Shown here: piece by piece, positions 893 through 27,714 of the stretch
How the letters are laid out: every line of letters starts with the position of its first letter
Position numbering within the stretch: position 1 is the first letter of the stretch
NCBI RefSeq assembly: GCF_017498565.1
Contig: NZ_CP071794.1
Location: 1,302,001 to 1,366,000 of the forward strand
Reading direction: 5' to 3'
Source: Parasphingorhabdus cellanae
GTDB taxonomy: Bacteria; Pseudomonadota; Alphaproteobacteria; Sphingomonadales; Sphingomonadaceae
DNA: 64,000 nucleotides
The notes under the pieces: model-generated
Told to the model about the DNA's origin: nothing
Database searches by the model: none
The model's input: the letters and a program-made list of their open reading frames with translations, nothing else
Made by a program: the position numbers and the translations under genes

Positions 893-3800
893 TCAAGCTG
901 CAAAATACGCCATAACCGTTATGTCTCTGTCGCGCATTTTCATCGAGGTCCCTGCCGAAGAAGCACCGAACATATTCATATCCTGCGTCATCAAAGCGAT
1001 TTTAAGAGCATCTGAACCGCCAGATGTTCCATAAGAAACCGAAATCGCTTCTTTGGATATGAGATCGGATTTGGCGCTCATTTTAGTGCGGCGGGTTGAT
1101 GTCGATTGCCTATGCCCGTCCTTACTTAGCTGTTCATAATAGTCGAATATATTTTTGTTACGGGTGAAAGCCGAAGCCGATCCCTGTCTTTCTAGATCAG
1201 TAAGTCCTCTGTTCAAACCAGCGCGCAGGGCTTCAAGTTCTGGCACTTCCGAGTACCGCATGCCGGGTTCTTTAAATCGCCCTTCGACAGGGGCTTGCAG
1301 CCTCAAATTTCTCTCGTATCTTGCATAGCTATCCCCAATTATAGCCTGCGGTGCAGCCGAAGATTGAGTGCTCGTGGTTGAACCGCCACCGAAGATGAAG
1401 TCGGATACATTGATATCGGACAGGAGGGTATTTTCGAGCACAATCTTTGGAATGGTCGGCGTGCTAATATCCACGCTGGTGCCGTTTTGCGTGATTGTCA
1501 GGTCACCAAAACCATTCACGCCGCCAGAGCCATTTAGAATCGCAATCTTATCGTTGCCATCGCTATAGTCTTTGATCGTTGCCCAAATCTCACTGGGGTT
1601 CAGAGCCCAGGCCGGCCCGACATAATCTGCAATGTCAAAGACAAAGTAATCGGCGGATTGCGTATTTCCCGGTCCTGTCACATTGCCATATTGATCGCCT
1701 TCTGCATCGCCGTAGACGCGCGCATCAAGATTACGAACCACAAGCACGTCAATACCATCGCGCCCTTGTAATGATGAATTCGTGCTCTCTGAAATCAGAA
1801 GGTCATTACCGCCAAGACCAACCATGTTGGTGTTATTCGAAGAGGAGGCTGCAAACATCGCATCATTGGCTGCTCCGCCTTCCATATAAAAGCTGTCATA
1901 TTCAACAATGTTGGTGATAGCGGGATAAGGAATGCCGTTATTGCCGGGCGGTGTCACACCACTAGCCCCAGCACCGAAGATAAAGTCCGATGCATCAATG
2001 TCTGACAGCAATGTATTTTCGAGTATAATTTTGGGAATTGTGGCCGTACTGATGTCCACATTTGCACCGTTTTGAGTTATCGTGAGATCACCAAAACCAT
2101 TCACGCCGCCCGAGCCGTTAAGGATCGCAATCTTATCGTTGCCATCACTATAATCCTTTATTTCCGCCCACACAAATTGGGGATCAAGTTCCGCCGGATT
2201 GCCCACATAATTAGCAACATTAAAAACGAAGTAATCGGCGGACTGCGTATTGCCCGGCCCCGTCACATTACCATATTGATCGCCTTCGGCATCGCCGTAG
2301 ACGCGTGCAGCAAGATTGCGAACGATTAGTATATCAGAACCGTCGCGACCTTGAAGCGATGAATTCCAGCTCTCTGTAATCAGTAGATCATTACCACCAA
2401 GGCCAACCATATTGGTGTTATTCGAAGAAGAAGCTGCAAACATCGCATCATTGGCTGCTCCGCCTTCCATGTAATAGCTGTCATATTCGACAATGTTGGT
2501 GATGGCTGGATATGGAATGCCGGTACCAACGGCAGGAGCCTGTACGGTCCATATAAAATCATCGCTCACGCTCAACGCGCCATCGCTAGCCGTCACTGTC
2601 AACTCCAGATCTCCGGTAAAACCTGCTGGAGGAGCACCGGTAAAGCTAGAACCATCAAATTGGAGCCATGCGGGTAAACTACTCCCGTCCGTTAATGCAG
2701 CGCTCAATGTGAGGACGTCGCCATCGACATCCGTAAATGTTCCAACTGGCACCACGAAACTGATCGTTTCATTTTCAAGGGACGATTGATCGGAGATCAT
2801 GAGCGATAGAACAGGTGCGTCATTAACTGGGTCAATCGTCAACGGGAAATTGTCGCTGACCTGCAGAACGCCGTCGCTGGCTGTAACGGTTAGCTCTAGA
2901 ATACCGTTAAAGTCCTGCGGCGGCGTGCCGACGAACCGTACGCCATCGAACGCTAACCAAGCGGGCAAAACAGAACCGTCCGAAAGCGCAGCAGAAAGCG
3001 AGAGCGTATCTCCGTCGACATCCATAAATGTATCAAGCGGAACAACAAGATCGATAACATCATCCTCAGCCAAAACCACACTGCTCAGTGGATTGTCGAT
3101 TTCAGGAGCGTCATTTTCCGGCGTAACGATCAATGCAAAACCACTTGAAACTGATTCAGCGCCAATGGTGCCAGTAATAACTATATCAAGCTGGCCATTG
3201 AAATTTTCTGGCGGCGTACCGACTATGTTGCCGCCGACTACGCTCAGCCATTCTGGGATCGCGTCTCCGTTAACCAGAGTCGCCGAATATTCAAAATCAC
3301 GACGATAGGTATCAACGAAAGCACCTTGCACCGAAAATGCTACCGCAGTATCTTCGGATGTTGTTACATCATCAATAACACCAACGGAAATAGGATCAGC
3401 CGCAACTGCTGCGGCAATAAGCTGCGTTCTAGTCCATACCACACGATCTGAAAAATGAATTTCTTCAATCCAATTATCGGGATTGTCACCTAACTGTTTC
3501 ATAAGATTAATAATTCCAAAACCGTCGCTGATTGGGTTCGGATCCCCGGGATTAGGGACATTTGGGACCAAAATTCTCAAATCGTCAGGACCACTGCCGT
3601 CAACCACAGTGATTACAGTCGAGCTGGCATTTATTCTTAGAATATCATTGCCATCGGCAGCTTCATCATCAGCAAGGCGTTCTGCGATGACTATCTTGTC
3701 AAACGCCCCTTGAGCGCCCGAGAGGATGTATTCGTCGTCACCGGCGCCACCAACTAATAGATCGATATCAGCAACACTATCGGTGTTGAGAGTAAGTCTA

Positions 3801-6493
3801 TCATTGCCTCCATTGCCAACGAGTAAATCATTGCCTGATGATCCCAATAAAATTTCATCACTAGCTGAACCAAACTGAACGACACCGATGTCATCACCAA
3901 CCGACGTGAGAACAGCATTGTCTGGAACTAACCCTAATTCATTGAGACTCAGAATATTTCCAAATTCCGAGAAGCTGAACTGAGAAAGATCACTTTCTTG
4001 AAGCAAGCCTTCAAAAGCGACGAATTGCAGATCAGTAGACAGCGGAGGAAGGGTAATTTCAATTAAATTACCATAAACGAAGGAAATCGGTTCATTAGCG
4101 ATCGCTCCCGTTTGGATAGCGCGTTGCGGCGCTGCAATTTCCGAAGCGGCAAATCTTGCGCTCGAAAAAGCCGCAGCGCCAGTTTGTGCTGCTGCTTTGG
4201 CCGAATCTACGGCCTCATCCAGCCTAAAACGCGAAATTGTTTTTTGCTCGGCATTGAAACCAGTGAAAGTTCCAGTATTCTCAATTTCAGGCAGCTCGCG
4301 ATCAATGCGATGTCCTCCAAAAGGCACATTGATATTGAAATTTTCAATTAGTCCGCGAAGCGATGAATCAAATTCAATTTTCGAATTGAAACCGACAGTA
4401 CCGGACTGAAATCTGACTGCGTCCCGACTAAAAAAAGAATCGTCATTCGTCCAGAGTTCTCCAACAAAGACATTCAGATAATCGTTCAAATTAAAGGATA
4501 GAGGGGCGTCATCATTTGTCGGGAAAGTGATGTCTGCGTCGACAAATGAGACAAGACCAAAGTTCGACGACAGCGACCCGATATTGCTAACGGAAACATC
4601 TCTATAATTTCCGTTACGAAACGCTGTTTTCAGCCCTGGGGCGCTTAGGTCTGCGAAAAAATCGATTGTTGATGGAATGATATTAGGTCGAAATTGGTTT
4701 GAGCCATATGAACCACTGACCTGCTGATCGAGTATATAAATATCGCTTGTAACCGAACCGCCGCCGTCGCCTTCCGTCAAGATTGTAGCCAATTGTTGAA
4801 TGCCTGAAACGGTTTTTTGATAGCCTGTAAACCGAACGCCGTTTACAAATAGCTGGTCTTGTTGTGGATCAAAATCCAAAATGAAAACACTTTTCAGGTC
4901 GAACGAACTGGGATTGTCAATTTCAGTGTAAACGTAAAATGTATCCTGGCCTTCCCCGCCAATGGCAAAGTCATTATAGCCCAAGTGAATATGATCATCT
5001 CCATCGCCGCCGAAAAGATAATTGACAGTGGATCCATCATTGCCCCCACCTTTAGCGTCTCCATAGAGTATGTCACTGCCACCGCCGCCAATCAGAGTAT
5101 CACTGCCACCGCCACCTGACAGTTCGTCTTCACCATTGCCACCGAAAAGAAAATCCCTTCCGCCTCCGCCTAAAGCGGTATCGTCATCATCCCCGGCAAC
5201 AATAGTATCGGCGCTATCTGCACCAAAAATATAATCATTTCCCTCGCCGCCAAAAATTGTGTCGCTGGTACCAAGCGGCACTTCTGAAATCAGGTCACGA
5301 TTAAAGAATTCTTCTTCTGATGAGCCCAAAGCCTGCACTTTGGAAAATTCGGAATCAAATACTGGTAATGGGTTCAGAAATTGACCTGGGGATTGCTGGA
5401 ATTCCTGTAATGCTTTACCTGAACCAAATATATAATCGTCGCCTTGTCCAGCCAAAATTGTGTTGCTGGCCAAGTTGCCAACAATCACGTCATCGGCGCC
5501 GCTGCCAGTTGCATTTTCAATCACAGCTCCGAAGGCGATCCCTACATTATCGACGAGACCGCCTATTGAACTAAAAGATCCTTGACGAAGATCGATCACA
5601 GAACCGCTACCGAAAAGGTCCCCCTCTGTCGCTGCGGCGCTTATTTGATCGATACCACCCGCGTCCCAAATCGTTTGATAAGTTTTATCGAAACTTCCGT
5701 CGCCAATATTGTCCCATTTTTCTTCGCCTGTAATGGAATATAGGTCATTCCCAGAATTAGTGGTCGTATTGACGCCCCAATTTTTTTGAAGGGCGTAAAT
5801 ATCGAGGATGCCAAGATCATAGGTATAGCCCCCTAATAGCGATAGCTTGTCGTTACTTAGAGCCGTCAATCTAGCATCCAAATCGTGACCAAGGGTTGAA
5901 TTGGCACCGCCGAATGCATGGATCATTTCATGGAGGCTGGTATTGTAGACTTGCTCTTCATCATTGGTGGGGCCATAAAACCAAGTCTGCGCTGTGCCGC
6001 GAATGGGATCGCGATCGAGCGGATTTACGCTCAAATTACCCAAAGTGATACCTTTAGCTGCCCCTTCAGGAATAACGCCTCCCGATCCCGGATCTTCATC
6101 GAGATCCAATTCCCTATTCAAAACACCATAAAAATAATCAGCATCATTGTCTTCGCTGTCAAATCCAGGAGCATTAAATATAAAACTGATATCCGCTACT
6201 GATGATACAAGTGCGAACGCTCGACGCATCGCCACGTTCCATATGTAATTTGGGCTTTGGGCTAGTGTAATAATTGGAAAATCGAACCTATCACTGATAC
6301 CGACTTGAGCTAATCCAATTTTGAGGGTTTCAGATAGTTGTGAGAAGGTCGGATTCTGAAATGGATCATTATTTCGGTCAGTTGCAACCGCAATTCTAAA
6401 CTCATTGACATTATTTGAAAGGCCGCCCCGAAGGTTGTCTCCCACGCTTGAAAAAACTAAATCTGAGTTGGATGTTTTGGCTAGCTGGGTCAA
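893..6493 (-). CDS. Giant RTX protein with zincin-like motif, Ig/cadherin-like repeats and duplicated C-terminal modules
   Basis: The 1866-residue product is probably exported by the type I system encoded just upstream. There is no N-terminal signal peptide. Residues 188-204 read HEMIHAFGGANSTLGHD, an HExxHxxG metalloprotease motif, but the next His is at 203 rather than three residues after the Gly as in serralysins. Glycine- and aspartate-rich RTX-type nonapeptides lie at about 330-510 and again around 880-930. Three Ig/cadherin-like (CADG-type) repeats follow at about 1040-1330. Two 195-residue tandem modules starting GIPYPAITN come next, then a tail ending in hydrophobic and small residues (VMAYFAA), consistent with a C-terminal type I signal. 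The start lies 5 bases after the stop of the upstream 202-residue gene, so the two are probably co-transcribed. Function as protease or adhesin is inferred. Confidence 0.85.
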   Translation of the reverse strand: MTQLAKTSNSDLVFSSVGDNLRGGLSNNVNEFRIAVATDRNNDPFQNPTFSQLSETLKIGLAQVGISDRFDFPIITLAQSPNYIWNVAMRRAFALVSSVADISFIFNAPGFDSEDNDADYFYGVLNRELDLDEDPGSGGVIPEGAAKGITLGNLSVNPLDRDPIRGTAQTWFYGPTNDEEQVYNTSLHEMIHAFGGANSTLGHDLDARLTALSNDKLSLLGGYTYDLGILDIYALQKNWGVNTTTNSGNDLYSITGEEKWDNIGDGSFDKTYQTIWDAGGIDQISAAATEGDLFGSGSVIDLRQGSFSSIGGLVDNVGIAFGAVIENATGSGADDVIVGNLASNTILAGQGDDYIFGSGKALQEFQQSPGQFLNPLPVFDSEFSKVQALGSSEEEFFNRDLISEVPLGTSDTIFGGEGNDYIFGADSADTIVAGDDDDTALGGGGRDFLFGGNGEDELSGGGGSDTLIGGGGSDILYGDAKGGGNDGSTVNYLFGGDGDDHIHLGYNDFAIGGEGQDTFYVYTEIDNPSSFDLKSVFILDFDPQQDQLFVNGVRFTGYQKTVSGIQQLATILTEGDGGGSVTSDIYILDQQVSGSYGSNQFRPNIIPSTIDFFADLSAPGLKTAFRNGNYRDVSVSNIGSLSSNFGLVSFVDADITFPTNDDAPLSFNLNDYLNVFVGELWTNDDSFFSRDAVRFQSGTVGFNSKIEFDSSLRGLIENFNINVPFGGHRIDRELPEIENTGTFTGFNAEQKTISRFRLDEAVDSAKAAAQTGAAAFSSARFAASEIAAPQRAIQTGAIANEPISFVYGNLIEITLPPLSTDLQFVAFEGLLQESDLSQFSFSEFGNILSLNELGLVPDNAVLTSVGDDIGVVQFGSASDEILLGSSGNDLLVGNGGNDRLTLNTDSVADIDLLVGGAGDDEYILSGAQGAFDKIVIAERLADDEAADGNDILRINASSTVITVVDGSGPDDLRILVPNVPNPGDPNPISDGFGIINLMKQLGDNPDNWIEEIHFSDRVVWTRTQLIAAAVAADPISVGVIDDVTTSEDTAVAFSVQGAFVDTYRRDFEYSATLVNGDAIPEWLSVVGGNIVGTPPENFNGQLDIVITGTIGAESVSSGFALIVTPENDAPEIDNPLSSVVLAEDDVIDLVVPLDTFMDVDGDTLSLSAALSDGSVLPAWLAFDGVRFVGTPPQDFNGILELTVTASDGVLQVSDNFPLTIDPVNDAPVLSLMISDQSSLENETISFVVPVGTFTDVDGDVLTLSAALTDGSSLPAWLQFDGSSFTGAPPAGFTGDLELTVTASDGALSVSDDFIWTVQAPAVGTGIPYPAITNIVEYDSYYMEGGAANDAMFAASSSNNTNMVGLGGNDLLITESWNSSLQGRDGSDILIVRNLAARVYGDAEGDQYGNVTGPGNTQSADYFVFNVANYVGNPAELDPQFVWAEIKDYSDGNDKIAILNGSGGVNGFGDLTITQNGANVDISTATIPKIILENTLLSDIDASDFIFGAGASGVTPPGNNGIPYPAITNIVEYDSFYMEGGAANDAMFAASSSNNTNMVGLGGNDLLISESTNSSLQGRDGIDVLVVRNLDARVYGDAEGDQYGNVTGPGNTQSADYFVFDIADYVGPAWALNPSEIWATIKDYSDGNDKIAILNGSGGVNGFGDLTITQNGTSVDISTPTIPKIVLENTLLSDINVSDFIFGGGSTTSTQSSAAPQAIIGDSYARYERNLRLQAPVEGRFKEPGMRYSEVPELEALRAGLNRGLTDLERQGSASAFTRNKNIFDYYEQLSKDGHRQSTSTRRTKMSAKSDLISKEAISVSYGTSGGSDALKIALMTQDMNMFGASSAGTSMKMRDRDITVMAYFAA
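1385..2521 (-). repeat. Tandem 585-bp intragenic duplication in the RTX gene
   Basis: Two copies of the same module start at 2521 and at 1936 on the minus strand, exactly 585 bases (195 codons) apart. About 184 residues are homologous in each. Long stretches are identical (for example DYSDGNDKIAILNGSGGVNG), while the copies differ at positions such as ITESWNSS/ISESTNSS and NPAELDPQ/PAWALNPS. This is an in-frame duplication that has begun to diverge. Confidence 0.9.
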
Positions 6494-6498
6494 TTTTG

Positions 6499-7107
6499 CT
6501 ACTCCCTATTCAATACTGGAATAAAACACCGCGGGCTTAGGTCGCTCGAATATTGCACCTCTTCCATTTCGTAAACATTGCGAATGGTGTTGTTTTTCAA
6601 ATTCAAAAGTTTGTGTAAGTATACTTCGTTTGCTTTCGATCCAACGAATAATGGTACACCGAAACTCATCTTAAGCTCAGAACCAACGGCACATCTTTTT
6701 TTGATTACAGAAACATCAATCAAGTCGGTTGAAACGGTATCGTCGTTAAACACAACCGTAAGAGCAATTTCAGAATCAAGATCTGCGATTGCCATGCAAT
6801 GGTCAGAATTTTCACGGTCGATTACTGTCTTTTTGCCCGATAACAATCCGGTTCTAATTTCGAAGTCTTTGATCAAATAAGCCGAAGCCCCTCGATGTTC
6901 ATCGCTTACCTCAGGATTACGGAGACGGTTCAGAAACAGTATATCAGTAGTATCTGTTGATAGACATGTTTCTGGATTAGGCAGTACGCCAAGCAACCTA
7001 GCCTGCACATCAATTTCCGACTTTCGTTCGAATGCCATAGTTAACAATACGGCCACAGCCATAAGAGTGACGGTGAAGGGAGGATTAAACAAGAAACGAC
7101 GTATCAT
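6499..7107 (-). CDS. Small membrane-anchored hypothetical protein, RTX partner
   Basis: The 202-residue product has one N-terminal hydrophobic segment (about residues 11-26, FTVTLMAVAVLLTMAF) behind a positively charged start, so it is probably anchored in the inner membrane with a periplasmic body. Two Cys (48 and 106) and others could form disulphides. I recognise no family. The gene ends 5 bases before the RTX start on the same strand, so an accessory role in RTX maturation, protection or retention is plausible. That role is inferred from position only. Confidence 0.7.
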   Translation of the reverse strand: MIRRFLFNPPFTVTLMAVAVLLTMAFERKSEIDVQARLLGVLPNPETCLSTDTTDILFLNRLRNPEVSDEHRGASAYLIKDFEIRTGLLSGKKTVIDRENSDHCMAIADLDSEIALTVVFNDDTVSTDLIDVSVIKKRCAVGSELKMSFGVPLFVGSKANEVYLHKLLNLKNNTIRNVYEMEEVQYSSDLSPRCFIPVLNRE

Positions 7108-7417
7108 GTCTTCTTACCCCTTTTCGGCGTTATGTAACACTCGTCGATCATGATGCCGATGGACCAGAATAAAAATCCATCGCCCACTGGGCTTTTCAAA
7201 TACTTTAAATAGCCCCTCGTCAGATACACAACGCCCCTTTCTCCCTGAAACAGGGAGACGAAATATTAGCGACTCCGATCATTGTCGGTGATTGCGCGAC
7301 TCCAATTTAATAGGCTAGCGAATTTACTGGGGTTTACAAGTGCGTGATTCAAAAATCATATATCCATTTCGGATGTTTACTTAAATCCCTCGGTATAGTG
7401 TAGCTTCTATACTTAAT
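7108..7417. promoter_or_regulatory. Intergenic control region upstream of the RTX transcription unit
   Basis: This 310-base gap between the HlyD stop and the 202-residue gene probably holds a terminator and a promoter. A perfect hairpin, TCTCCCTG-aaa-CAGGGAGA, lies at 7240-7258. A palindrome-like element centred on ATCCATTTCGGAT lies at about 7358-7378 and resembles the perfect palindrome upstream of the exporter gene (11196-11216). No ORF of note is present. Confidence 0.5.
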
Positions 7418-8875
7418 CTATCGTTCACGCCCTGCTTCATCCATTGTCTTGGCAATGGGCGACAGTAAATATTGGATGATACGCCGCTCGCCGGTCTTGA
7501 TCTCCGCCTGTACTTGTAGACCCGGGCCGATCGCTTGACGCCTGCCACCCACCATCAGGTGGCGTTTGTTGAGTTTGATCCGCGCTGCATAGACCAGCCC
7601 GAGATTTTCATCCTGGATCGCATCGCGGCTGATATTGTCGACCACGCCTTCGATCAGGCCGTAATCGGTGAAGTTAAACGCCTCCAGCTTCACCCGTACC
7701 GGCTGGCCCTCATAGATGAATCCGATATCCTTGTTGAGGATCTGCGCGCTGACCTGCACCTCGGCATCATTCGGCACGATCACCATGATCGGCTCGGCGG
7801 GTTGCACCACGCCGCCAATGGTGGTCAGGGTGAGTTGTTGCACCGTGCCATCGACCGGTGAACGGATCTGCTGGAACTCGCGGCGCTTGGCGGCCTTGCG
7901 CAGCTCAGAAACGGCCATGGCCGAGCGATCCTCTGCCTCCGCCATTTCCGATACCGCGCCGCGGCCAAATGCCTGACGCAACCTTGTGATCTGCGCATCG
8001 AGGTTGCCGATGGAGGCCCGCGCCTGCGCCGCATTGGCGTGCTGCACTTCGATATTCTGGATATGCTCGACGCGCAGTTGCTCAAATTCCAGCAGGCGCA
8101 AGCGCGAGAAATAGCCTTTCTCAGCCAGCTCCTGTCGCGCAGCCAGTTGCCGGTCGAGCAATGGCAGGGTTTGTTCGAGCTTTGCTATCTCCGCCTGCGC
8201 ACCGATAAGCTGCGCCTGGCGTTCGGCGCGTTGCTGCTCGAGGCTCGCCTTTTCGGCTTCATATTCACCAATGGCCGAACGCACAAATTGCGTCTGGGTG
8301 AGTGCGACATCGGTCGGCGTTCCCGCTGGCGGTACAAACTGCGCATTCAAACCCTTTAGATGCGCCATCAGCGCATCATTGCGGGCACGGACAATTTCGG
8401 CAGACATTAGCTGCTGAGAACTTTGCGCCGCATCGGCATTGCTGATCGTGGAGTCGAGCTCGACTAGCAACTGACCTTTCTTGACCCGCTGACCGTTTTT
8501 CACATGGATGGCGCGGATGGATCCGATCTCAATCGGCTGGATGACCTTGCTGCTCGCCGAGGGCACAACCTTCCCGGTGGCGGTGGCGACCACATCAACC
8601 TTGCCGATAAACGACCACAGCAAGGCTATCGCAAACAGGCTGCACAGAATTAGCATCAACCAGCGCAGGCCGGGGCTCGCTGGCTTCTCCATGATCTCCA
8701 GAGCAGCTGGTAAAAATTCATGATCGCTTTGCGGCTTGGCATTATCATCGGCTACATTTTGCTGCGCCCAGCTTTCCCGGAGGATCATCCAATGGCGCGC
8801 CAAGCCGGGGAAGCGGCGTGCGAAAAATCCTTCTTTTACCGCTGCATCTTCCGCGCTGGCTTGTTCTTCGCTCAT
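7418..8875 (-). CDS. HlyD-family type I secretion periplasmic adaptor
   Basis: The 485-residue membrane fusion protein links the ABC exporter to an outer-membrane TolC-like channel, which is not in this window. It has a cytoplasmic N-terminus, one membrane segment near residues 73-90 (LRWLMLILCSLFAIALLW), a biotinyl-lipoyl-like start (VVATATGKVVPS), a long alpha-helical hairpin over about 160-320 and a C-terminal beta-barrel part. The family is usually 430-480 residues, so the length fits. The ATG overlaps the stop of the ABC gene (ATGA), which indicates translational coupling. The likely cargo is the adjacent RTX protein. Confidence 0.93.
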   Translation of the reverse strand: MSEEQASAEDAAVKEGFFARRFPGLARHWMILRESWAQQNVADDNAKPQSDHEFLPAALEIMEKPASPGLRWLMLILCSLFAIALLWSFIGKVDVVATATGKVVPSASSKVIQPIEIGSIRAIHVKNGQRVKKGQLLVELDSTISNADAAQSSQQLMSAEIVRARNDALMAHLKGLNAQFVPPAGTPTDVALTQTQFVRSAIGEYEAEKASLEQQRAERQAQLIGAQAEIAKLEQTLPLLDRQLAARQELAEKGYFSRLRLLEFEQLRVEHIQNIEVQHANAAQARASIGNLDAQITRLRQAFGRGAVSEMAEAEDRSAMAVSELRKAAKRREFQQIRSPVDGTVQQLTLTTIGGVVQPAEPIMVIVPNDAEVQVSAQILNKDIGFIYEGQPVRVKLEAFNFTDYGLIEGVVDNISRDAIQDENLGLVYAARIKLNKRHLMVGGRRQAIGPGLQVQAEIKTGERRIIQYLLSPIAKTMDEAGRER

Positions 8876-11067
8876 GCCCCGATGCCCATTTGTTTTTTGT
8901 AGAGCATGGCATAACGCCCATCGGCTTTGATAAGTTCGTCATGCGTGCCAATTTCCGTAATTTCACTAGCCTCAACGGTCACGATGCGATTGCATTGGCG
9001 CACAGCGGATAGCCGGTGGGCAATAATCATGGTCGTACGGCCTTGCGCGATCTTGCTCAAATTATTCTGGATAATCTCTTCGCTCTCCGCATCCAGCGCA
9101 CTGGTAGCTTCATCAAGGATCAGGACACGCGGATCACCAATCAGAGCTCTGGCTATGGCTAACCTTTGACGCTGACCTCCGGACAGATTGCCACCACGTT
9201 CTTCAATGATCGTGTCATAGCCATGGGGAAGTTCCAATATGAACTCGTGCGCTCCGGCTAGCGTTGCCGCAGCGATCACCGCTTCCATTGGCCGCGTTGG
9301 ATCAGCCAATGAGATATTTTCACGGACCGTCCGATTGAACAAGATGTTCTCTTGCAGCACGACGCCGATTTGTCGGCGGAGCCAGGCCGGATCGACCAGC
9401 GCCAGATCAACGCCATCGATCAGCACCCTGCCTTGCTCAGGCACATAAAGCCGCTGCACCAATTTGGTCAGTGTTGATTTGCCAGAACCGGAAGGCCCAA
9501 CAATGCCGATCATCTCGCCTGCTTTCACTTCCAGGCTGACGCCGCGCAAAGCTTCAGCTGCATCGGGACGATAGCGGAAGCGCACCTTATCAAATTCTAT
9601 ACGGCCACTGATCGGCGGCAAGCTGGCGCGGCCCGGATTATATTCTGGCTCTGCCGGAGAGTTGAGCACATCGCCCAGCCGGTCGACAGAGATGCGCACT
9701 TGCTGAAAATCCTGCCATAGTTGGGACAATCGCAAAATCGGCTGCGCAACGCGCCCAGCCAGCATATTGAACGCGACGAGAGAACCGACGGTGAATGTAC
9801 CGGCTATCACTGCTTTTGCACCAAAATAGAGAATTGCCACGGTGGTAAGCTTCGATACGATCTGGATAAGATGACTGCCCCAATTTGACAGCACGGCGAC
9901 CTTGAAACCGGTCTGCGTATAGCCAGAGAAAAGTTTTTCCCATTTGTCGCGCATCTGCGGCTCCACCGCCATGGATTTAAGCGTGCCAATGCCAGTAACC
10001 GTTTCCACCAGAAAGGCCTGGTTTTCTGCTCCCTGGCGAAACTTTTCGTCAAGCCGCGCCCGCAGCGGCGGGGTGATGAACAAGGAGATCGCAATGTAGA
10101 TCGGAATGGTCAGCGCCACGATTAGCGTCAGCAGCGGCGAATAGATATACATGACCACAAAAAAGACGATGGTGAAGAACAGATCGATAACCACAGTCAC
10201 GGCATTGCTGGTGAGAAACTGGCGGATATTTTCCAGTTCGCGGACGCGAGCGACACTGTCGCCCACGCGCCGTGCTTCGAAATAGCTAACCGGCAAATTG
10301 ACCAGATGCCGGAACATGTTGGTCGACAGTTCAGCATCGACACGGTTAGTCGTGTGGGCGAACAGCCAGTTTCGCAGCGCCGACAGAAATGTCTCCCAGG
10401 TCAGCACAACAGCCAAGCCAAAGGCCAGCACCTCCAAGGTTGTGAGCGACTGGTGCACCAGCACTTTATCAATCACCAATTGAAAGAAAATCGGTGAGGC
10501 AAGTCCCATGAGTTGCAGAAAGAAGCTGCCGATCAGCACATCGCGCAAGGCGCGGCGATATTTCACCAGCGCCGGGATGAACCAGCTTATGTCAAAGGGC
10601 CGTTTATCGCCAGTAACTTTTTCGCGCGAGGTTAGCAGCAACAAACGCCCGGCAAAAACTTCGTCCATTTGCTCTACTGACAAGACTTCTGGTCGCTCGG
10701 CATCGCCGCGCTGGATCAAATAGCGGGGCGCTAGACTCTCTTCTTCGATCTTCAGCAAGATAAACGCGCCGCCATCTTGGGTTCGCAAGATCGCTGGCAG
10801 CGGTATCTTGCTCAGCTCTTCTCGCTTTGCATCGCGCAGCCTTGATATCAGCCCGAGTTTTTTGGCAATGCGCGACAGATGTTCCAGCGTATAAGGCTCA
10901 TCGCCCTGCCCGCGGTCATGATGGATCTGATTAGGGTCTGCGGGAACGCCGAGAAATTTGGCAAGCAACACAAAGCAAGCCAACGCCGGGTCAAGCGGCG
11001 CCGAACTGGTCAACGCAGCCTGATCGACATCTGCACTGGTGTTTTGATCGTCTGCCCCCTCGGACAT
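8872..11067 (-). CDS. Type I secretion ABC exporter with C39-like (inactive) domain
   Basis: This inner-membrane ATPase powers RTX export. In order it carries an N-terminal C39-like domain, a six-helix ABC membrane domain and a nucleotide-binding domain with Walker A (GPSGSGKST), signature (LSGGQRQR) and Walker B plus D-loop (VLILDEATSALD). In the C39 region the usual DCG catalytic Cys position is Pro (DPALACFVLLAKFLG), so the domain should bind rather than cleave substrate, as in HlyB/LapB-type exporters. The ATG at 11067 follows GGGGCG and is preferred. An in-frame ATG at 11115 would add 16 residues but lacks a clear ribosome site. Confidence 0.93.
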   Translation of the reverse strand: MSEGADDQNTSADVDQAALTSSAPLDPALACFVLLAKFLGVPADPNQIHHDRGQGDEPYTLEHLSRIAKKLGLISRLRDAKREELSKIPLPAILRTQDGGAFILLKIEEESLAPRYLIQRGDAERPEVLSVEQMDEVFAGRLLLLTSREKVTGDKRPFDISWFIPALVKYRRALRDVLIGSFFLQLMGLASPIFFQLVIDKVLVHQSLTTLEVLAFGLAVVLTWETFLSALRNWLFAHTTNRVDAELSTNMFRHLVNLPVSYFEARRVGDSVARVRELENIRQFLTSNAVTVVIDLFFTIVFFVVMYIYSPLLTLIVALTIPIYIAISLFITPPLRARLDEKFRQGAENQAFLVETVTGIGTLKSMAVEPQMRDKWEKLFSGYTQTGFKVAVLSNWGSHLIQIVSKLTTVAILYFGAKAVIAGTFTVGSLVAFNMLAGRVAQPILRLSQLWQDFQQVRISVDRLGDVLNSPAEPEYNPGRASLPPISGRIEFDKVRFRYRPDAAEALRGVSLEVKAGEMIGIVGPSGSGKSTLTKLVQRLYVPEQGRVLIDGVDLALVDPAWLRRQIGVVLQENILFNRTVRENISLADPTRPMEAVIAAATLAGAHEFILELPHGYDTIIEERGGNLSGGQRQRLAIARALIGDPRVLILDEATSALDAESEEIIQNNLSKIAQGRTTMIIAHRLSAVRQCNRIVTVEASEITEIGTHDELIKADGRYAMLYKKQMGIGA

Positions 11068-11180
11068 GATTTTACGCGCCCCTGCTGTACTCAGGCAATA
11101 AGGTGTAACAATCATTTTCTAGATTTGCCAACTAATCTGATAACCGATGGTCAACTACTTTGATTTACTTGACTTCTTTT

Positions 11181-11348: not shown

Positions 11349-11548
11349 ACACCTCGGTGATGCCCACACGCAGGGCATTGGGGATTAGTAACCCCGATAC
11401 AGACGGTAGATGCTGACCGTAACAGCGTCGCACTCTTTGATCTTATGGTCGGGGAGCCTGTGGCGTATGTCCAGGGCTCTCGGGTCTAAAGGCCATAGGA
11501 CCGATCTGTATCGGTATACTAACTCCCCGATCACCAAGGATCAGGTGT
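11349..11548 (+). ncRNA. Large structured RNA / leader candidate, class unknown
   Basis: Nested complementary segments can be read directly. ACACCT (11349-11354) pairs with AGGTGT (11543-11548). GGTGAT (11356-11361) pairs with ATCACC (11530-11535). A hairpin forms from TGCCC/GGGCA (11361-11377). GGGGATTAGT (11380-11389) pairs with ACTAACTCCCC (11518-11528) with one bulge. CCGATACAGA (11394-11403) pairs perfectly with TCTGTATCGG (11505-11514). TCTTATGGTC (11441-11450) pairs with GGCCATAGGA (11491-11500) with two G-U pairs. GAGCCTG (11454-11460) pairs with CAGGGCTC (11472-11479). The result is a three-way junction with a long arm. I do not recognise a known Rfam class. The strand is inferred from the downstream gene. 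Confidence 0.6.
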
Positions 11549-11597
11549 GAAGTCGAAAGCGGGGGCGTACCGCAGACGACTTCCGGGGAGACCGGAA
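11549..11597 (+). promoter_or_regulatory. Mutually exclusive hairpins over the DUF5818 ribosome-binding site
   Basis: GAAGTCG (11549-11555) pairs with CGACTTC (11577-11583), enclosing GCGG/CCGC. TTCCGG (11581-11586) can instead pair with CCGGAA (11592-11597), placing GGAGA in its loop immediately before the ATG at 11598. Both hairpins need bases 11581-11583, so they compete. This is the layout expected of a translational switch below the structured element at 11349-11548. Confidence 0.45.
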
Positions 11598-11888
11598 ATG
11601 CCAAGAGGAACAATACATAGAGAAACCGGCATATTACGCCGGGCGCCGTTGGGCTATGCGCTGGAAATGAACGGCGGCAGCAGCTGGATGCTTGATATAA
11701 ACGGCAGTATGCGAACGTTGATTGGAAAACGCCTTACCGTTGAAGGCAAGCGGATGGGGTTTGATCTGATCTATGTGGATCACATCTGGGTTGATGGAAA
11801 GCTATGGAAGCTTAGTATTTGGAAAAGGGTTGTGCTTTGGCTATTCTCGTCGACCATGATTTTGGGAATTGTTCTTTCCCTCATTTGA
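11598..11888 (+). CDS. DUF5818 domain-containing protein
   Basis: The product is 96 residues from the ATG at 11598 (MPRGTIHRETG). The segment up to about residue 60 (GYALEMNGGSSWMLDIN, IGKRLTVEGKRMGFDLIYVDHIW) matches the small beta-rich DUF5818 proteins of sphingomonads, whose role is unknown. Unlike many relatives it ends in a hydrophobic membrane segment (VVLWLFSSTMILGIVLSLI). A GTG at 11547 in the same frame would add 17 basic residues, but that stretch forms RNA hairpins and is probably leader. The gene sits directly below the structured RNA candidate. Confidence 0.75.
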   Translation: MPRGTIHRETGILRRAPLGYALEMNGGSSWMLDINGSMRTLIGKRLTVEGKRMGFDLIYVDHIWVDGKLWKLSIWKRVVLWLFSSTMILGIVLSLI

Positions 11889-12175
11889 ATGTTGGTAACA
11901 GCCAGGTCTTGTCAAATATCTTCAGTATATCCCGCCAGCCCATAGCTGCTTCATTGGGCAAGGTTTAAGGATCAGCCTTCTTTTCGGATATGGGATATCA
12001 TCAACAATTTCTGTGCACACGAGTAGCATTACAAAGCGCCAACTACCTTCGAAACACACGCCTTACAGGCGCCTTACCACGCTAAGTCATTGGGGTTGCG
12101 TGGAGCGTGATGGAGAGAAGGCGACAGTTTGGCGTGATCCAAGGGCGCTCACGCCGATATGCTATAACCACCTCT
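11889..12175. other. Intergenic region before the recombinase
   Basis: I see no convincing gene here. The stretch could contain an attachment site for the adjacent tyrosine recombinase, but I find no matching direct repeat in the window. Confidence 0.3.
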
Positions 12176-12697
12176 ATGAAATACCAATATAAACGCGTGC
12201 CTCTCAACCTGGATCAAGTCCAGGCGCTCGAACAGGCGTGCCTGGAATTTGAGGACAAACTGCTTGCTTGGCTTTTGCTCGATACCGGCTTGCGCATCGG
12301 CGAGTGGCAGTCGCTCACCCCGCAAAATGTCAATTGGCAAGAACGCACGCTGACCATTTTTGGCAAAGGCACTGGCGGTCAATCCAAAAGGCGCACCGTG
12401 CCGGTGTCCAATCGATCCATGGCCTTGCTCGAAAAGCATTTTGCCATCCGCAATGATATGGATTGTTCCATTCGCTCGGCACAGCGGCGCGTAAAAATCA
12501 TAGCCAACCGCGCAAAAATTACGACGCCGGTATCGCCGCATGTGCTCCGGCATACATTTGCGATCCTCGCTTTGATGAAAGGCTTTTCATTACCCGCCCT
12601 GCAAAAAATATTGGGTCATGAAAATTTGGAAACGACCGCGATATATTTGAATATGCAGGACTCGCATGTGATCGACGAATATCGAACGAAGTGGTAA
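12176..12697 (+). CDS. Short tyrosine recombinase (catalytic domain only)
   Basis: From the ATG at 12176 the product is 173 residues. All tyrosine-recombinase residues are visible: R40 (GLRIGE), a Lys around 64-71 (FGKGTGGQSKRR), H122-x-x-R125 (HVLRHTF), H148 (LGHEN) and Y157 (TTAIYLN). The usual N-terminal core-binding (SAM-like) domain is absent, so the protein is about half the normal integrase length, although it looks intact rather than broken. It could be a stand-alone catalytic unit from an integrative element. It lies at the left part of the accessory island. Confidence 0.88.
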   Translation: MKYQYKRVPLNLDQVQALEQACLEFEDKLLAWLLLDTGLRIGEWQSLTPQNVNWQERTLTIFGKGTGGQSKRRTVPVSNRSMALLEKHFAIRNDMDCSIRSAQRRVKIIANRAKITTPVSPHVLRHTFAILALMKGFSLPALQKILGHENLETTAIYLNMQDSHVIDEYRTKW

Positions 12698-12821: not shown

Positions 12822-14402
12822 TTGGGGGCGACTACAGATGATATGCGCGCAAGCGATCACTTTCGTGCGTTTGTAAGCTACAGCCATGCAGATGCGCGTT
12901 TTGCGCACAAGCTGCACCGCAAGATGGAAACCTATCGGCTACCTTCCCAGTTCCGAAAGGGGTCGACTAGCGTTGAAACGGGATTGACCGATGGGCGCCT
13001 CGGTAAAATTTTCCGGGACCGTGAAGATTTACCCGCATCTCAAGATCTTTCTCAAGCCGTAAAAGAAGCACTTTCCTCTTCCCAAGCCCTAATTGTATTA
13101 TGTTCGCCCGATGCCAAATCGTCTCCCTGGGTATCGCAAGAGATTGACTTGTTCCGGTCTTTACATCCCGATCGACCTATTCTTGCAGCACTGATTAGAG
13201 GAGAGCCTGAAGAGTCTTTTCCAGAGCCACTCTTGCAAGGCCGAGAACCATTGGCAGCTGATCTCCGAAAAGAGGGAGACGGTTGGAAGCTAGGTTTTCT
13301 AAAAATCGTCGCTGGCATTGCGGGAGTATCCCTGGACTCTCTTGTTCAACGCGATGCACAGAGGCGTTTAAACCGCGTGATGGTCGTCACGGGTGGTGTG
13401 CTGGTTGGTCTGCTAGCCATGGTCGGGATGACAATGTTAGCAATCCAATCGCGCAACGAAGCGCAACTCGAACGAGCCAAGGCTGAAGGGCTTGTCGAAT
13501 ATATGCTCACTGACTTGAGAAACCAACTCAAGGGTGTTGGACGTTTGGATGTCATGTCCAACGTTAATGAGCAAGCAATGAGCTATTATGAAGGGCAGGA
13601 TAATCTGAGCGACCTAACCGCCGACAGCTTGGAACGGCGAGCGAGAATACTGCACGCCATGGGTGAGGATGACACTAATCGCGGCGATATGGATAGAGCC
13701 ATCACAAAGTTTGTTGAAGCTCGACGCGTGACTGCGAATTTATTGCAACGAAATCCCAAAAAACCGGAACGTATTTTTGCTCACGGACAAAGCGAATATT
13801 GGTTAGGTTATATACATTATCGCCAAAAGAAATGGCCGGCAGCAGAAGAACGATGGACCAGCTATCAAGCATTAGCCTCCGAACTGACAGCAATCTCAAA
13901 AACCAACTCTAAGTGGCAAAAAGAAGAGTCTTATGCGCTCGGCAATCTATGCACTTTAAGTGTCGTTCGAAACGATAAAAACTTAGACAATGACAAATAC
14001 TGTGAACCGGCCTTAGACATTATGGTACTATTGCGGGATGAACTGCCTGATGACCGCCAACTACAACGCGATGTCGCAAACAGGCATAGTTGGTTGAGCA
14101 AATTCTATGATAAAAGAGGCGAAACCGAAAAAGCTTTAGCCCAATTGCAAATAAGCGAAGATCTATTGCTTGATCTTGTCGGGCAAGATTTGCGAGATAT
14201 GGAGAGCGTTCACCTACTTATGGGTGTACGAATGGTTTATGCTGAACTTCTATTAACAGCACGTCGTCCCCAAGAAGCAATCCAAAAAAACCGCCAATCC
14301 CTGCAACTAGCCGAACAGATGGTGAAGCGCGACATTCGCAACCAGAAATGGCGTGATTGGCAGAAACGCGCAATCGAGTTTGATAAAAGCCCAAGCAAAT
14401 AA
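12822..14402 (+). CDS. TIR-domain protein with transmembrane segment and TPR-like helical C-terminus
   Basis: The 526-residue product starts at TTG 12822, nine bases after AAGGGGG. An ATG at 12843 is an alternative. Residues 13-145 form a TIR domain (FRAFVSYSHADARFAHKLHRKM, then SPWVSQEI), and Glu107 occupies the W-x3-E position of the NADase glutamate in TIR enzymes. A membrane segment lies at about 185-208. The remaining 300 residues are helical with TPR-like character (GRGDMDRAITKF, RPQEAIQKNRQSL regions). This places a cytoplasmic TIR on the membrane with a sensor-like helical part. It is the first gene of a tight operon with the next two. A defence or NAD-consuming role is inferred from family knowledge. 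Confidence 0.88.
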   Translation: MGATTDDMRASDHFRAFVSYSHADARFAHKLHRKMETYRLPSQFRKGSTSVETGLTDGRLGKIFRDREDLPASQDLSQAVKEALSSSQALIVLCSPDAKSSPWVSQEIDLFRSLHPDRPILAALIRGEPEESFPEPLLQGREPLAADLRKEGDGWKLGFLKIVAGIAGVSLDSLVQRDAQRRLNRVMVVTGGVLVGLLAMVGMTMLAIQSRNEAQLERAKAEGLVEYMLTDLRNQLKGVGRLDVMSNVNEQAMSYYEGQDNLSDLTADSLERRARILHAMGEDDTNRGDMDRAITKFVEARRVTANLLQRNPKKPERIFAHGQSEYWLGYIHYRQKKWPAAEERWTSYQALASELTAISKTNSKWQKEESYALGNLCTLSVVRNDKNLDNDKYCEPALDIMVLLRDELPDDRQLQRDVANRHSWLSKFYDKRGETEKALAQLQISEDLLLDLVGQDLRDMESVHLLMGVRMVYAELLLTARRPQEAIQKNRQSLQLAEQMVKRDIRNQKWRDWQKRAIEFDKSPSK

Positions 14403-25358: not shown

Positions 25359-25813
25359 GTGAGCTGGATGCCCAATTAAGAGAGCTTGCAACAATGCCCC
25401 CTGCCCAGCTCCGGTCTAGGTGGCGCGATCTATTCCGGCAGGCTGCGCCAGCAATAGCACCCGACCTTCTGCGCCGATCCATAGCTTGGAGATTGCAGGA
25501 GCGCCAACATGGCAGGCTGGCACCATCGGTCAAAAAGAAGATTGTTCAACTGCAAAAGCGTTTGGAGAAATCTGGAGGCGCCGATCTCACAAATGATATA
25601 GCGCTCAAACCTGGGACACGATTGGTTCGGGAATGGAATGGCAAAAGCTATCACGTACTTGTCTGTGAAGAAGGTTTTGAATTTGATAATCGGCATTATC
25701 GCAGTCTCAGTCATATCGCCGAAGAAATTACGGGCGCTCATTGGTCAGGACCCCGCTTCTTTGGATTGAGGAAACGCGGTGGGTTCAAGCCGAAGGTGCC
25801 GGCGGATGCCTGA
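25355..25813 (+). CDS. DUF2924 domain-containing protein
   Basis: The 152-residue product has the family segments LRSRWRDLFRQAAPAIAPDLL, then GTRLVREWNGKSYHVLV and FGLRKRG near the end. DUF2924 proteins accompany serine recombinases of this element type, and their activity is not established. The gene overlaps DUF3489 upstream by 4 bases and the recombinase start (25806) by 8, so the three genes are translated as one unit. Confidence 0.9.
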   Translation: MSELDAQLRELATMPPAQLRSRWRDLFRQAAPAIAPDLLRRSIAWRLQERQHGRLAPSVKKKIVQLQKRLEKSGGADLTNDIALKPGTRLVREWNGKSYHVLVCEEGFEFDNRHYRSLSHIAEEITGAHWSGPRFFGLRKRGGFKPKVPADA

Positions 25814-27422
25814 GAAGAAAAGCAAAACCCGCTGCGCTATCTATACTCGCAAATCTACCGAAGATGGCTTGGAACAGGCCTTCAATAGTCTAGATGCGCA
25901 ACGTGATGCGTGTGCGGCCTATATATTGAGCCAGACTCACGAAGGATGGGAGGGATCATCGGAACTTTATGATGATGGAGGCTTCAGCGGTGGCTCAATG
26001 AAAAGACCGGGTCTTGAACAGCTACTGCAGGATGTGAAAGCAGGGAAAGTTGATGTCATTGTCGTGTACAAGGTTGATCGCCTCACGCGGTCGCTTGCTG
26101 ACTTTGCCAAGATCGTCGAAATACTGGATGAACATGGTGCCAGTTTTGTAAGCGTCACCCAATCATTTAATACCACCACCAGTATGGGCAGACTAACACT
26201 AAATGTACTTCTATCCTTTGCCCAGTTTGAACGCGAAGTAACGGGCGAACGCATCCGTGACAAGATTGCCGCCTCCAAGAAGAAGGGAATGTGGATGGGC
26301 GGTCCAGTTCCCATTGGTTATGACCTTGGAGACCGGAAGCTTCTCATCAATCATGAGGAATCCAAAACAGTACAGCATATCTTCAAACGCTATACAGAAC
26401 TGAGGTCGGTGCCCCAGCTTGTCGATGAACTGGCAAGGCAGGGCTATCGAACGAAGATTCGTACTTACAAGGACGGAAGAAAAATTGGTGGCGTGACCTT
26501 TTATCAAGGCCCACTTGCTCAACTGCTTAAAAATCCAATCTATGTAGGCAAGGTGCGTCACAAAGATGAAATCTATGATGGGGAGCATGATGCCATCATC
26601 GAGCAAGAACTATTTGATCAGGTTCAAGCGATTTTTGCATCCAACAGAAACGACAATGCATTGGGCAAGAAGGCGAAGAACCCGAGTCTGCTGACCGGAC
26701 TTATTACAGATCCTGATGGAAGGTCGATGACGCCTTGTCATGCATCTCGCGGGGTTAAACGGTATCGCTACTATGTGACGCGGTTTAAACTCGGAGAAGA
26801 AAAAACCGAAGCTTGGAGATTGCCATCCAATGAGATTGAGCGATTAGTCACTGACACTTTCGCCAAAGCTTTGATAAGCATAATACCTACCTCAGGTGAT
26901 GCGAAGTTCATACAGGACCAAATCGACCGATATCAGGACATTGCTTATCGATTGCTCCACGGGACCATCACTCAAAAAAGAAAGAATTTGCTGGACCATC
27001 ATCTAAGGGTTCAAGTCCGCCAGCAGAATGTCGAACTAAGCTTCAAGCCAGAGCCTGATAACGAGCCAATGCATGTCTCCGTCGATGCCAAGCTGGTTAA
27101 GCGAGGTAGCGAAGTCAAACTTGCTATCCCACCGAGCGGATCACCCCTAAAGTCCGTTCCAAATCCGACGCTCCAGAAACTCGTTGCGCAAGCTTTTGCG
27201 GCTCAAGATCATATGCTCGGCAACAAACCAAATTCCGCTATCGCACATTACAGCCGTCGTTATTTGGGACAGCTTGTCAGGATATCCTGGCTCGCACCGG
27301 ATATTATTGCAGCCATAATGGATGGCACTCAACCATCTGAACTAACGGGCCGCAAGCTTACTCGCGTCAATAGCATTCCACTCGATTGGCCAAGCCAGCG
27401 CAAAATGTTCGGGTTCACCTGA
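25806..27422 (+). CDS. Large serine recombinase
   Basis: From ATG 25806 the product is 538 residues. The N-terminal resolvase domain has Ser17 in YTRKSTEDG, the conserved DAQRDAC segment and YKVDRLTRSLADF. A recombinase domain (PIGYDLGDRKLLINHEE, LLKNPIYVGKVRHKDEIYDGEHDAII) and a zinc-ribbon-like region follow. It integrates or excises DNA between att sites through a serine-DNA intermediate. It forms one unit with DUF3489 and DUF2924 and marks the right part of the accessory island. The protein appears intact. Confidence 0.93.
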   Translation: MPEKKSKTRCAIYTRKSTEDGLEQAFNSLDAQRDACAAYILSQTHEGWEGSSELYDDGGFSGGSMKRPGLEQLLQDVKAGKVDVIVVYKVDRLTRSLADFAKIVEILDEHGASFVSVTQSFNTTTSMGRLTLNVLLSFAQFEREVTGERIRDKIAASKKKGMWMGGPVPIGYDLGDRKLLINHEESKTVQHIFKRYTELRSVPQLVDELARQGYRTKIRTYKDGRKIGGVTFYQGPLAQLLKNPIYVGKVRHKDEIYDGEHDAIIEQELFDQVQAIFASNRNDNALGKKAKNPSLLTGLITDPDGRSMTPCHASRGVKRYRYYVTRFKLGEEKTEAWRLPSNEIERLVTDTFAKALISIIPTSGDAKFIQDQIDRYQDIAYRLLHGTITQKRKNLLDHHLRVQVRQQNVELSFKPEPDNEPMHVSVDAKLVKRGSEVKLAIPPSGSPLKSVPNPTLQKLVAQAFAAQDHMLGNKPNSAIAHYSRRYLGQLVRISWLAPDIIAAIMDGTQPSELTGRKLTRVNSIPLDWPSQRKMFGFT

Positions 27423-27638: not shown

Positions 27639-27714
27639 TGGTGCCGCTTAGAGGACTCGAACCTCTGACCCCATCATTACGAATGATGTGCTCTACCACC
27701 TGAGCTAAAGCGGC
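27639..27714 (-). tRNA. tRNA-Thr (anticodon CGU)
   Basis: The minus strand folds as a full cloverleaf: acceptor GCCGCTT/AAGCGGC, D-arm AGCTCAGGTGGTAGAGC, anticodon arm ATCAT-TCGTAA-TGATG with anticodon CGT, T-arm AGAGG-TTCGAGT-CCTCT and an encoded CCA. Length is 76. Its 3' end faces the serine-recombinase element, and core genes begin on the other side. Confidence 0.96.

What the first reader, a model, noticed from the sequence alone, without database searches (positions are those of the whole stretch)
11349..11597. Unrecognised 200-base structured RNA with a switch-like 3' end before a DUF5818 gene
Seven sets of complementary arms nest into a three-way junction with a long arm, including a perfect 10-bp helix (11394-11403 with 11505-11514). 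Just below, two hairpins compete for bases 11581-11583, and one puts the ribosome site in its loop directly before the ATG. I cannot match it to 6S, SRP, tmRNA, RNase P or the cobalamin riboswitch. It could be a new riboswitch or leader class, or an independent RNA.
Basis: partly seen in the sequence, partly recalled or inferred. Interest (0 to 1): 0.8.

Follow-up and report, generated by a model that had tools for sequence, protein, structure and literature searches.

The report
C4-like RNA leader before DUF5818

Summary
The structure is real and conserved, but not specific to DUF5818. Homologues occur in 51 of 385 class genomes and 223 plasmid records, just upstream of unrelated genes: DUF5818, DUF2285 (QseM-like), traM on an octopine Ti plasmid, HTH regulators, lipoproteins, nucleases, methylases. 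The fold is larger than described and doubly pseudoknotted. D is probably the switch strand: in 15 of 156 hits a terminator-like hairpin starts inside D, and elsewhere D is complementary to the ribosome site (window: CUCCCCG with CGGGGAG). In layout it is a relative of phage C4 antisense RNA and sRNA-Xcc1: same core, plus an upstream half that C4 loci carry as the a1/b1 target. Rfam sees the window only below threshold (C4, 23.2 bits against 45), and C4's downstream a2/b2 copies and U-run are not clearly present, so I call it C4-like: a new variant. The signal is unknown; trans action is untested. The RBS-in-loop hairpin is not conserved (2 of 21).

The parts
11360..11378 (+). P0 hairpin; loop 11366-11372, its ACGC (11368-11371) complementary to the P7 loop
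   Evidence: loop pairs; ACGU goes with GGACGY in 3 cases; P0 motif and P7 co-occur
11380..11395 (+). A:B hairpin GGGG/CCCC with loop A' (11386-11391), counterpart of C4 target a1
   Evidence: A':D' 597 of 602 standard pairs, 5 of 6 pairs with double changes
11397..11406 (+).
   Evidence: 5 of the 7 significant covarying pairs
11409..11429 (+). P3 hairpin
   Evidence: 584 of 653 standard, 7 of 7 pairs with a double change
11433..11442 (+). Strand E, alternative partner of C (local hairpin E:C in the predicted minimum-energy fold)
   Evidence: fold; 936 of 1000 standard pairs, 2 of 10 pairs with a double change
11447..11456 (+). Strand C (GGUCGGGGAG)
11457..11499 (+). P4 (11457-11464/11492-11499) with conserved internal loop GUAUGUCCA (11465-11473) / UAAAG (11487-11491) and P5
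   Evidence: 792 of 808 standard; CUAAAG in 127 of the 155 matched of 161
11505..11511 (+). Px 3' strand, counterpart of C4 antisense element b'
11516..11521 (+). D' strand, counterpart of C4 antisense element a'
11523..11536 (+). Strand D (11523-11532, CUCCCCGAUC) followed by ACCA; the proposed switch strand
   Evidence: C:D; terminator overlap in relatives; SD complementarity; ACCA
11549..11583 (+). P7 hairpin with loop GGGCGUA (11563-11569)
11584..11590 (+). Shine-Dalgarno region CGGGGAG, complementary to D (11523-11529) and a copy of part of C
   Evidence: duplex -15.3 kcal/mol
11598..11888 (+). DUF5818 gene, the presumed controlled gene in this copy
   Evidence: PF19135, 51.8 bits

Best explanation
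A cis-acting, C4-like RNA leader. Shown by comparison: a 5' half (A:B hairpin with A' loop, Px 5' strand, P3) and a C4-like core (C, P4/P5, Px 3' strand, D', D) pair with each other through Px, A':D' and C:D, and a gene begins at a narrow distance after D. Inferred: strand D alternates. When the full fold forms, C holds D, and the ribosome site (or, in relatives, the read-through path) is free. When C pairs with E instead, D is released and sequesters the ribosome site (window type) or joins a terminator (divergent type), so the gene is off. Also inferred: RNase P may cut at the 5' side of C, as recalled for C4, releasing a core whose unpaired Px 3' and D' strands could act on sister transcripts, giving element-specific immunity or dosage control.
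For: Covariation: all 7 pairs with E<0.05 under a tree-based null of my own script lie in Px (5) and A':D' (2). C:D keeps pairing through many sequence forms although D was unpaired in the search model. A terminator-like hairpin begins 4-7 nt inside D in 15 of 156 hits, none of those 15 with the P7 motif. SD+ATG+ORF follows D in 111 of 150 hits against 147 of 2482 control windows. SD regions of the following genes fit D better than other SDs of the same loci (72% against 26% at score 14 or more, 112 loci). Homology to C4: the window aligns over C..D; 7 of 16 divergent loci score 26-41 bits with RF02221; C4 and sRNA-Xcc1 loci carry the same upstream half (Rfam c4-a1b1).
Against: No expression, binding or reporter data. 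The C4 match of the window is sub-threshold. Column by column D:SD is poor in the close set (401 of 698 standard, 1 of 7 pairs with a double change), though that stretch is badly aligned; D:SD also fits badly in single members, e.g. the Ti-plasmid traM leader L026 (score 11), L009 (6), L010 (8). Clear a2/b2 copies were not found (9 of 129 above the 95th percentile of permuted pairs, about 6 expected; the mean, 15.8 against 13.8, is however raised). The U-run after P3 of C4 loci is nearly absent (4 of 161). C:D varies too little in the close set to be significant there, and P0, A:B, P4, P7 and E:C gave no pair at E<0.05. Hits were picked by a model that contains Px, though not A':D' or C:D.
Confidence: 0.62

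Rival explanations
1. A ligand-binding riboswitch: the P4/P5 internal loop (GUAUGUCCA/UAAAG) binds a small molecule that stabilises the C:D pseudoknot, with D overlapping a terminator or pairing with the SD.
For: A pseudoknot strand overlapping a terminator is a familiar riboswitch layout; highly conserved internal loop; up to 9 matches per genome before mostly unrelated genes.
Against: The downstream genes scanned suggest no common metabolite; C4 relatives work as antisense RNAs without ligand (recalled; IsrK passages); Px is the fastest-evolving helix (30 changes per column), as one might expect of an antisense specificity element, although misalignment may inflate this.
Confidence: 0.18
2. 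An independent trans-acting sRNA whose gene happens to lie before ORFs, as sRNA-Xcc1 is annotated.
For: sRNA-Xcc1 was seen as an ~100-nt RNA on Northern blots (PMC2996969, passages).
Against: Narrow spacing to the start codon (peak 60-75 nt after D) across unrelated genes, 111 of 150 against 6% of controls; D overlap with terminator-like hairpins just before the downstream gene.
Confidence: 0.12
3. A protein-responsive leader (Hfq, ProQ/FinO or another RNA-binding protein is the signal).
For: TraM protein falls in an hfq mutant of A. tumefaciens (passages of PMC4201532); a ProQ/FinO-family gene lies just upstream on the two Ti-type records opened.
Against: No such gene is annotated in the other eight plasmid stretches opened (the plasmid gene tables are incomplete); the Hfq effect on TraM may be indirect.
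Confidence: 0.08
4. A structured DNA site (recombination or replication) rather than an RNA.
For: Many copies are on plasmids and probable mobile elements; a recombinase fragment lies at 12107-12697.
Against: Strand bias of fold stability, G-U pairs on the + strand, orientation and spacing to genes, terminator-like hairpins.
Confidence: 0.03

Closest known systems
C4 antisense RNA of phages P1/P7 (Rfam RF01695) with its c4-a1b1 target (RF03163)
   Same: Core fold: outer stem (C:D), hairpin 1 (P4), hairpin 2 carrying b' (Px 3'), linker a' (D'); upstream a1/b1 counterpart (A'/Px 5') in a hairpin loop and the adjoining strand. The names a', b', a1, b1 are from Rfam's descriptions and recall.
   Different: Window scores 23.2 bits, gathering 45; no clear a2/b2 downstream, SD complementary to D instead; no U-run after P3; P0-P7 loop complementarity; the gene is not an antirepressor.
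sRNA-Xcc1 (Rfam RF02221)
   Same: The Rfam model equals the 3' half (C to D); its loci carry the same upstream half; some places match both models (e.g. G604 contig 9).
   Different: The window gives no RF02221 match even at E 10; annotated as an independent sRNA; its loci often repeat A'/Px near the start codon (8 of 22).
IsrK of Salmonella prophage Gifsy-1 (Rfam RF01394)
   Same: RF01394 matches the 5' half of the six C4 loci scanned, three of them over its cut-off; a short form changes translation of its own read-through transcript (PMC4825925, abstract and passages).
   Different: The alphaproteobacterial leader lacks the internal U-run that could make a short form (present in 4 of 161).
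Pseudoknot riboswitches whose last strand overlaps a terminator (for example ZTP; recalled)
   Same: Logic of a pseudoknot strand shared with the terminator.
   Different: No ligand known; different fold.

Membership tests
C4 antisense RNA (RF01695) | Covariance model score at or above gathering (45 bits) | tested here: not met
   23.2 bits, E 0.024 on the 266-base stretch
C4 antisense RNA (RF01695) | Core fold: outer stem, two inner hairpins, linker | tested here: met
   alignment over model 1-87; C:D and P4 pairing
C4 antisense RNA (RF01695) | Upstream a1/b1 complementary to a'/b' | tested here: met
   A':D' and Px; same layout in C4 loci. Rfam's c4-a1b1 model itself does not match the window at E up to 10
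C4 antisense RNA (RF01695) | Downstream a2/b2 copies at the ribosome site | tested here: inconclusive
   9 of 129 alphaproteobacterial loci above the 95th percentile of permuted pairs, mean raised; in C4 loci 9 of 16 by a differently built test; none seen by eye in the window
C4 antisense RNA (RF01695) | Processing to a ~77-nt RNA and repression in trans (recalled) | not testable with these tools
   no expression data; RCCN follows D in 112 of 161 (ACCA in 95) against 115 of 644 control windows, compatible with RNase P processing
sRNA-Xcc1 (RF02221) | Covariance model score at or above gathering (53 bits) | tested here: not met
   no match of the window at E up to 10; best divergent relative L239 40.6 bits
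Metabolite riboswitch | Ligand-dependent structural switch | not testable with these tools
   no ligand evidence; gene contents uninformative
Cis-regulatory leader (general) | Conserved position in the 5' region of a following gene on the same strand | tested here: met
   111 of 150 against 147 of 2482

The most novel reading that the evidence does not exclude
A large alphaproteobacterial RNA-switch superfamily, descended from C4-type immunity RNAs, has become a general cis switch for mobile-element decisions and cargo: it precedes the conjugation antiactivator genes traM and qseM-like, restriction-modification and nuclease genes, pilins and phage regulators. C4, IsrK, c4-a1b1 and sRNA-Xcc1 are pieces of the same RNA architecture, and the Px/A' strands act as per-element specificity codes.
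Probability: 0.4. Interest if true: 0.85.

Novelty: new variant of a known kind. Interest (0 to 1): 0.7.

Why it matters
That gives a testable post-transcriptional layer in quorum-sensing control of conjugation.

Tried and rejected
Rejected: a DUF5818-specific riboswitch (genes differ); the RBS-loop hairpin as a conserved switch; radC RNA (RF01754: 0 of 8 genomes over the cut-off, weak matches in 4); tmRNA, 6S, SRP, RNase P and cobalamin families (no Rfam match in the window region, nor at threshold in 20 divergent loci, which gave two tRNAs only). The mixed alignment A7 was too poor for a core-only covariance model and A6 had too many columns; I kept model R1, whose E-values are rough. In one search I tested P4 and P7-outer in a wrong register; corrected. 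P0 is probably misaligned by one base. One search used a wrong register for A':D', corrected. The helix finder takes the best helix within a search stretch and so leans towards finding one; searches are set against cross-locus pairs, one search is not. For L211 and L220 my guessed coordinates seem wrong and no gene was assigned. L287 looks misplaced and was left in the count. Of 30 RF02221 loci fetched, got 24 (22 usable) and got 26 (22 usable). Of the 120 named loci, 86 went. The 162 hits come after dropping L002, L073 and an antisense-strand hit of L015; later scripts also dropped L049 (161). Some frames may be spurious; Pfam was run on chosen representatives, not on every gene. Literature: ten searches; none of the listings or passages seen describes this leader before traM, qseM or DUF5818. 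Primary papers on QseM, FseA and sRNA-Xcc1 (2011) are not held. The P1 C4 papers were not opened; what I say of them is recalled.

Full report
What is there. On the + strand, 11349-11597 folds far better than shuffles (z -5.84; the - strand z -3.18). No Rfam family reaches its threshold. A DUF5818 gene starts at 11598 (PF19135). Homologous DNA occurs in 17 of 149 genomes of the family, the own genome included, and, at E 1e-3, in 223 of 72,556 plasmid records, 187 of them predicted conjugative, 159 from Agrobacterium or Rhizobium. Of the 60 rows listed there, 58 have no annotated feature under the match, one has a hypothetical protein and one record is not annotated. A covariance model from 25 sequences (R1) finds it in 51 of 385 genomes of the class and 17 of 299 of the phylum, own genome included; in these large searches only 5-7 candidates per genome were scored. 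The window genome holds three places: this one, a partial copy before a DUF5818-like frame (by eye), and a divergent one before a small lipoprotein-like gene without Pfam match.

Structure. Order 5' to 3': hairpin P0; hairpin A:B with loop A'; Px 5' strand; P3; E; C; P4 with an internal loop and P5; Px 3' strand; D'; D; ACCA; P7; SD; ATG. In 101 non-redundant close homologues (of 128) realigned by MAFFT without structure, a tree-based null of my own script (40 simulated alignments) left 7 of about 28,900 column pairs at E<0.05: five in Px and two in A':D'. No pair of the other helices passed. With registers corrected, standard pairs are: A':D' 597/602, C:D 994/1002, P4 792/808, A:B 390/404, E:C 936/1000, P3 584/653, Px 513/619, P7 inner 373/404, P7 outer 380/580, D:SD 401/698. 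C:D hardly varies in the close set. In the wider set it keeps pairing through many forms, for example GGUCGGGGAG/CUCCCCGAUC, GGCCGGGAG/CUCCCGGCC, CCGGGGG/CCCCCGG and GAUCGGGGUG/CACCCCGAUC (80 rows, 40 distinct entries counting 'none' and one antisense-strand row). D was unpaired in R1, so this is not built in. The P0 loop ACGC is complementary to the P7 loop GGGCGY; where P0 reads ACGU, P7 reads GGACGY in three cases (L029 second copy, L083, L156), L030 is a G-U exception and L168 is unclear (66 loci). P0 motif and P7 occur together in 115 of 161 hits, neither in 27, P0 only in 12, P7 only in 1, D not found in 6.

A leader, not a free RNA. An SD+ATG+ORF of at least 60 aa begins 20-100 nt after D in 111 of 150 hits against 147 of 2482 control windows, with a peak at 60-75 nt. 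The genes are mostly unrelated: 158 assigned frames fall into 71 crude clusters. The largest are PF10074, called RovC_DNA-bd in this Pfam copy and DUF2285 in the plasmid annotation (31), DUF5818 (22), HTH_3 (15) and a BamE-domain lipoprotein (6), each named from one representative. TraM follows in three loci (octopine Ti plasmid L026, L079, pSA3 L030). Others include AraC-type, MCP, outer-membrane barrel, SNase, FkbM and Bro-N, and in divergent copies a type IIG restriction-methylase, EcoRI-type methylase, PD-(D/E)XK, DUF4268, HNH, PilS and a Rha-like protein below Pfam's cut-off. In Ketogulonicigenium the RNA lies between a divergent HTH gene and a DUF2285 gene; qseC, an HTH gene, likewise neighbours qseM (PMC8627217 and PMC5882170, passages). 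That these genes are QseM orthologues is my inference. Eight genomes searched closely hold 9, 9, 7, 7, 5, 5, 3 and 3 matches at E 0.01, some partial. I claim no statistical enrichment of defence or conjugation genes; that was not tested.

The switch strand. In 15 of 156 hits with a recognised D, a hairpin with a U-rich tail starts 4-7 nt inside D, for example L045, L051, L052, L053, L057, L061, L108; none of these 15 has the P7 motif. Among the 27 hits without P0 motif and P7, 13 have a U-run after D, against 6 of the 115 with both. In 112 loci, D is more complementary to the SD region of the following gene than to other SD regions of the same loci (72% against 26% at score 14 or more). The loci are related, so this is no clean probability. 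In the window CUCCCCG (11523-11529) faces CGGGGAG (11584-11590). Duplex energies: C:D -18.0, D:SD -15.3, E:C -10.2, A+A' with D'+D -15.3 kcal/mol. The likely logic (inferred): the full fold holds D with C and leaves the platform free; release of D, with C held by E, closes the platform.

Relation to known RNAs. A permissive scan of 16 divergent loci gave sub-threshold matches to sRNA-Xcc1 (RF02221) in 7, best L239 with 40.6 bits against 53. RF02221 occurs in 53 of 299 phylum genomes, 35 over the cut-off. Its model spans C to D only. The stretch upstream of its hits carries the A:B hairpin and the Px 5' strand: in 22 loci A':D' exceeded the 95th percentile of cross-locus pairs in 9 and Px in 6 (means 18.8 against 12.4 and 18.8 against 15.7), and 16 of 22 have an SD+ATG+ORF downstream. 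Some also repeat A' or Px before the start codon (8 of 22 above the 95th percentile). The window itself aligns to C4 (RF01695) over 11441-11538: outer stem is C:D, hairpin 1 is P4, hairpin 2 carries the Px 3' strand, the linker is D' (23.2 bits, E 0.024, gathering 45). Sixteen RF01695 loci show the same upstream half and downstream copies over the SD (upstream 6 of 16, downstream 9 of 16 above the 95th percentile). In the six of them scanned, Rfam's c4-a1b1 and isrK models both match that upstream half in all six, each over its cut-off in three; neither matched the six sRNA-Xcc1 loci or the two traM plasmids of the same call. RF01695 matches 2 of 190 genomes of this class and 29 of 200 of the phylum, so the R1 type looks like the alphaproteobacterial counterpart. 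Differences: no clear a2/b2 copies (9 of 129 above the 95th percentile, although the mean is raised, 15.8 against 13.8) and almost no U-run between Px 5' and C (4 of 161, against 16 of 22 and 10 of 13 in the Xcc1 and C4 sets).

Mechanism and limits. Cis regulation through D is the best-supported reading. Release of a C4-like core is suggested by RCCN after D (112 of 161, ACCA in 95, against 115 of 644 control windows) and by the recalled fact that the C4 precursor is an RNase P substrate. The fast evolution of Px (30 changes per column against 0.8 in C:D; misalignment may add to it) fits an antisense specificity code, but trans action is untested. Published support for post-transcriptional control of a member is thin: TraM protein falls in an hfq mutant of A. 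tumefaciens (PMC4201532, passages), which may be indirect; sRNA-Xcc1 was seen as an ~100-nt RNA (PMC2996969, passages) and lies upstream of symE in Xanthomonas cassettes (PMC12444791, passages).

Noticed in passing
window 12107-12697, 25779-27422, 27639-27714: A short tyrosine-recombinase fragment (Pfam), a serine-type recombinase-like ORF (by eye) and a tRNA-Thr (CGT) lie to the right of the RNA; with the TIR-domain ORF 12822-14402 this may be a genomic island.
   Followed up: no
window 893-11115: A large repeat-rich ORF (893-6493, by eye) lies beside HlyD-type and peptidase-C39 ABC transporter genes, suggesting a type I secretion locus left of the RNA.
   Followed up: no
L002 (own genome, second copy): A second RNA copy lacks the part before 11415 and the stretch 11500-11581 and is followed by a short DUF5818-like frame: a decayed paralogue.
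   Followed up: partly
G150 loci L203, L219, L236-L240: One genome carries several copies of the leader before paralogous tiny proteins sharing a motif like ATxKMLNAGI.AGA, function unknown.
   Followed up: no
L076:2944-3008: A type II hammerhead ribozyme (66.4 bits) lies about 1.2 kb from a divergent leader.
   Followed up: no
L253, L259, L260, L274, L277: These sRNA-Xcc1 loci precede genes that look by eye like phage antirepressors (Bro-N, KilA or Rha type), not checked by profile.
   Followed up: no
L026:5519-5851: A ProQ/FinO-family gene sits immediately before the leader and traM on the octopine Ti plasmid, also in L028.
   Followed up: no
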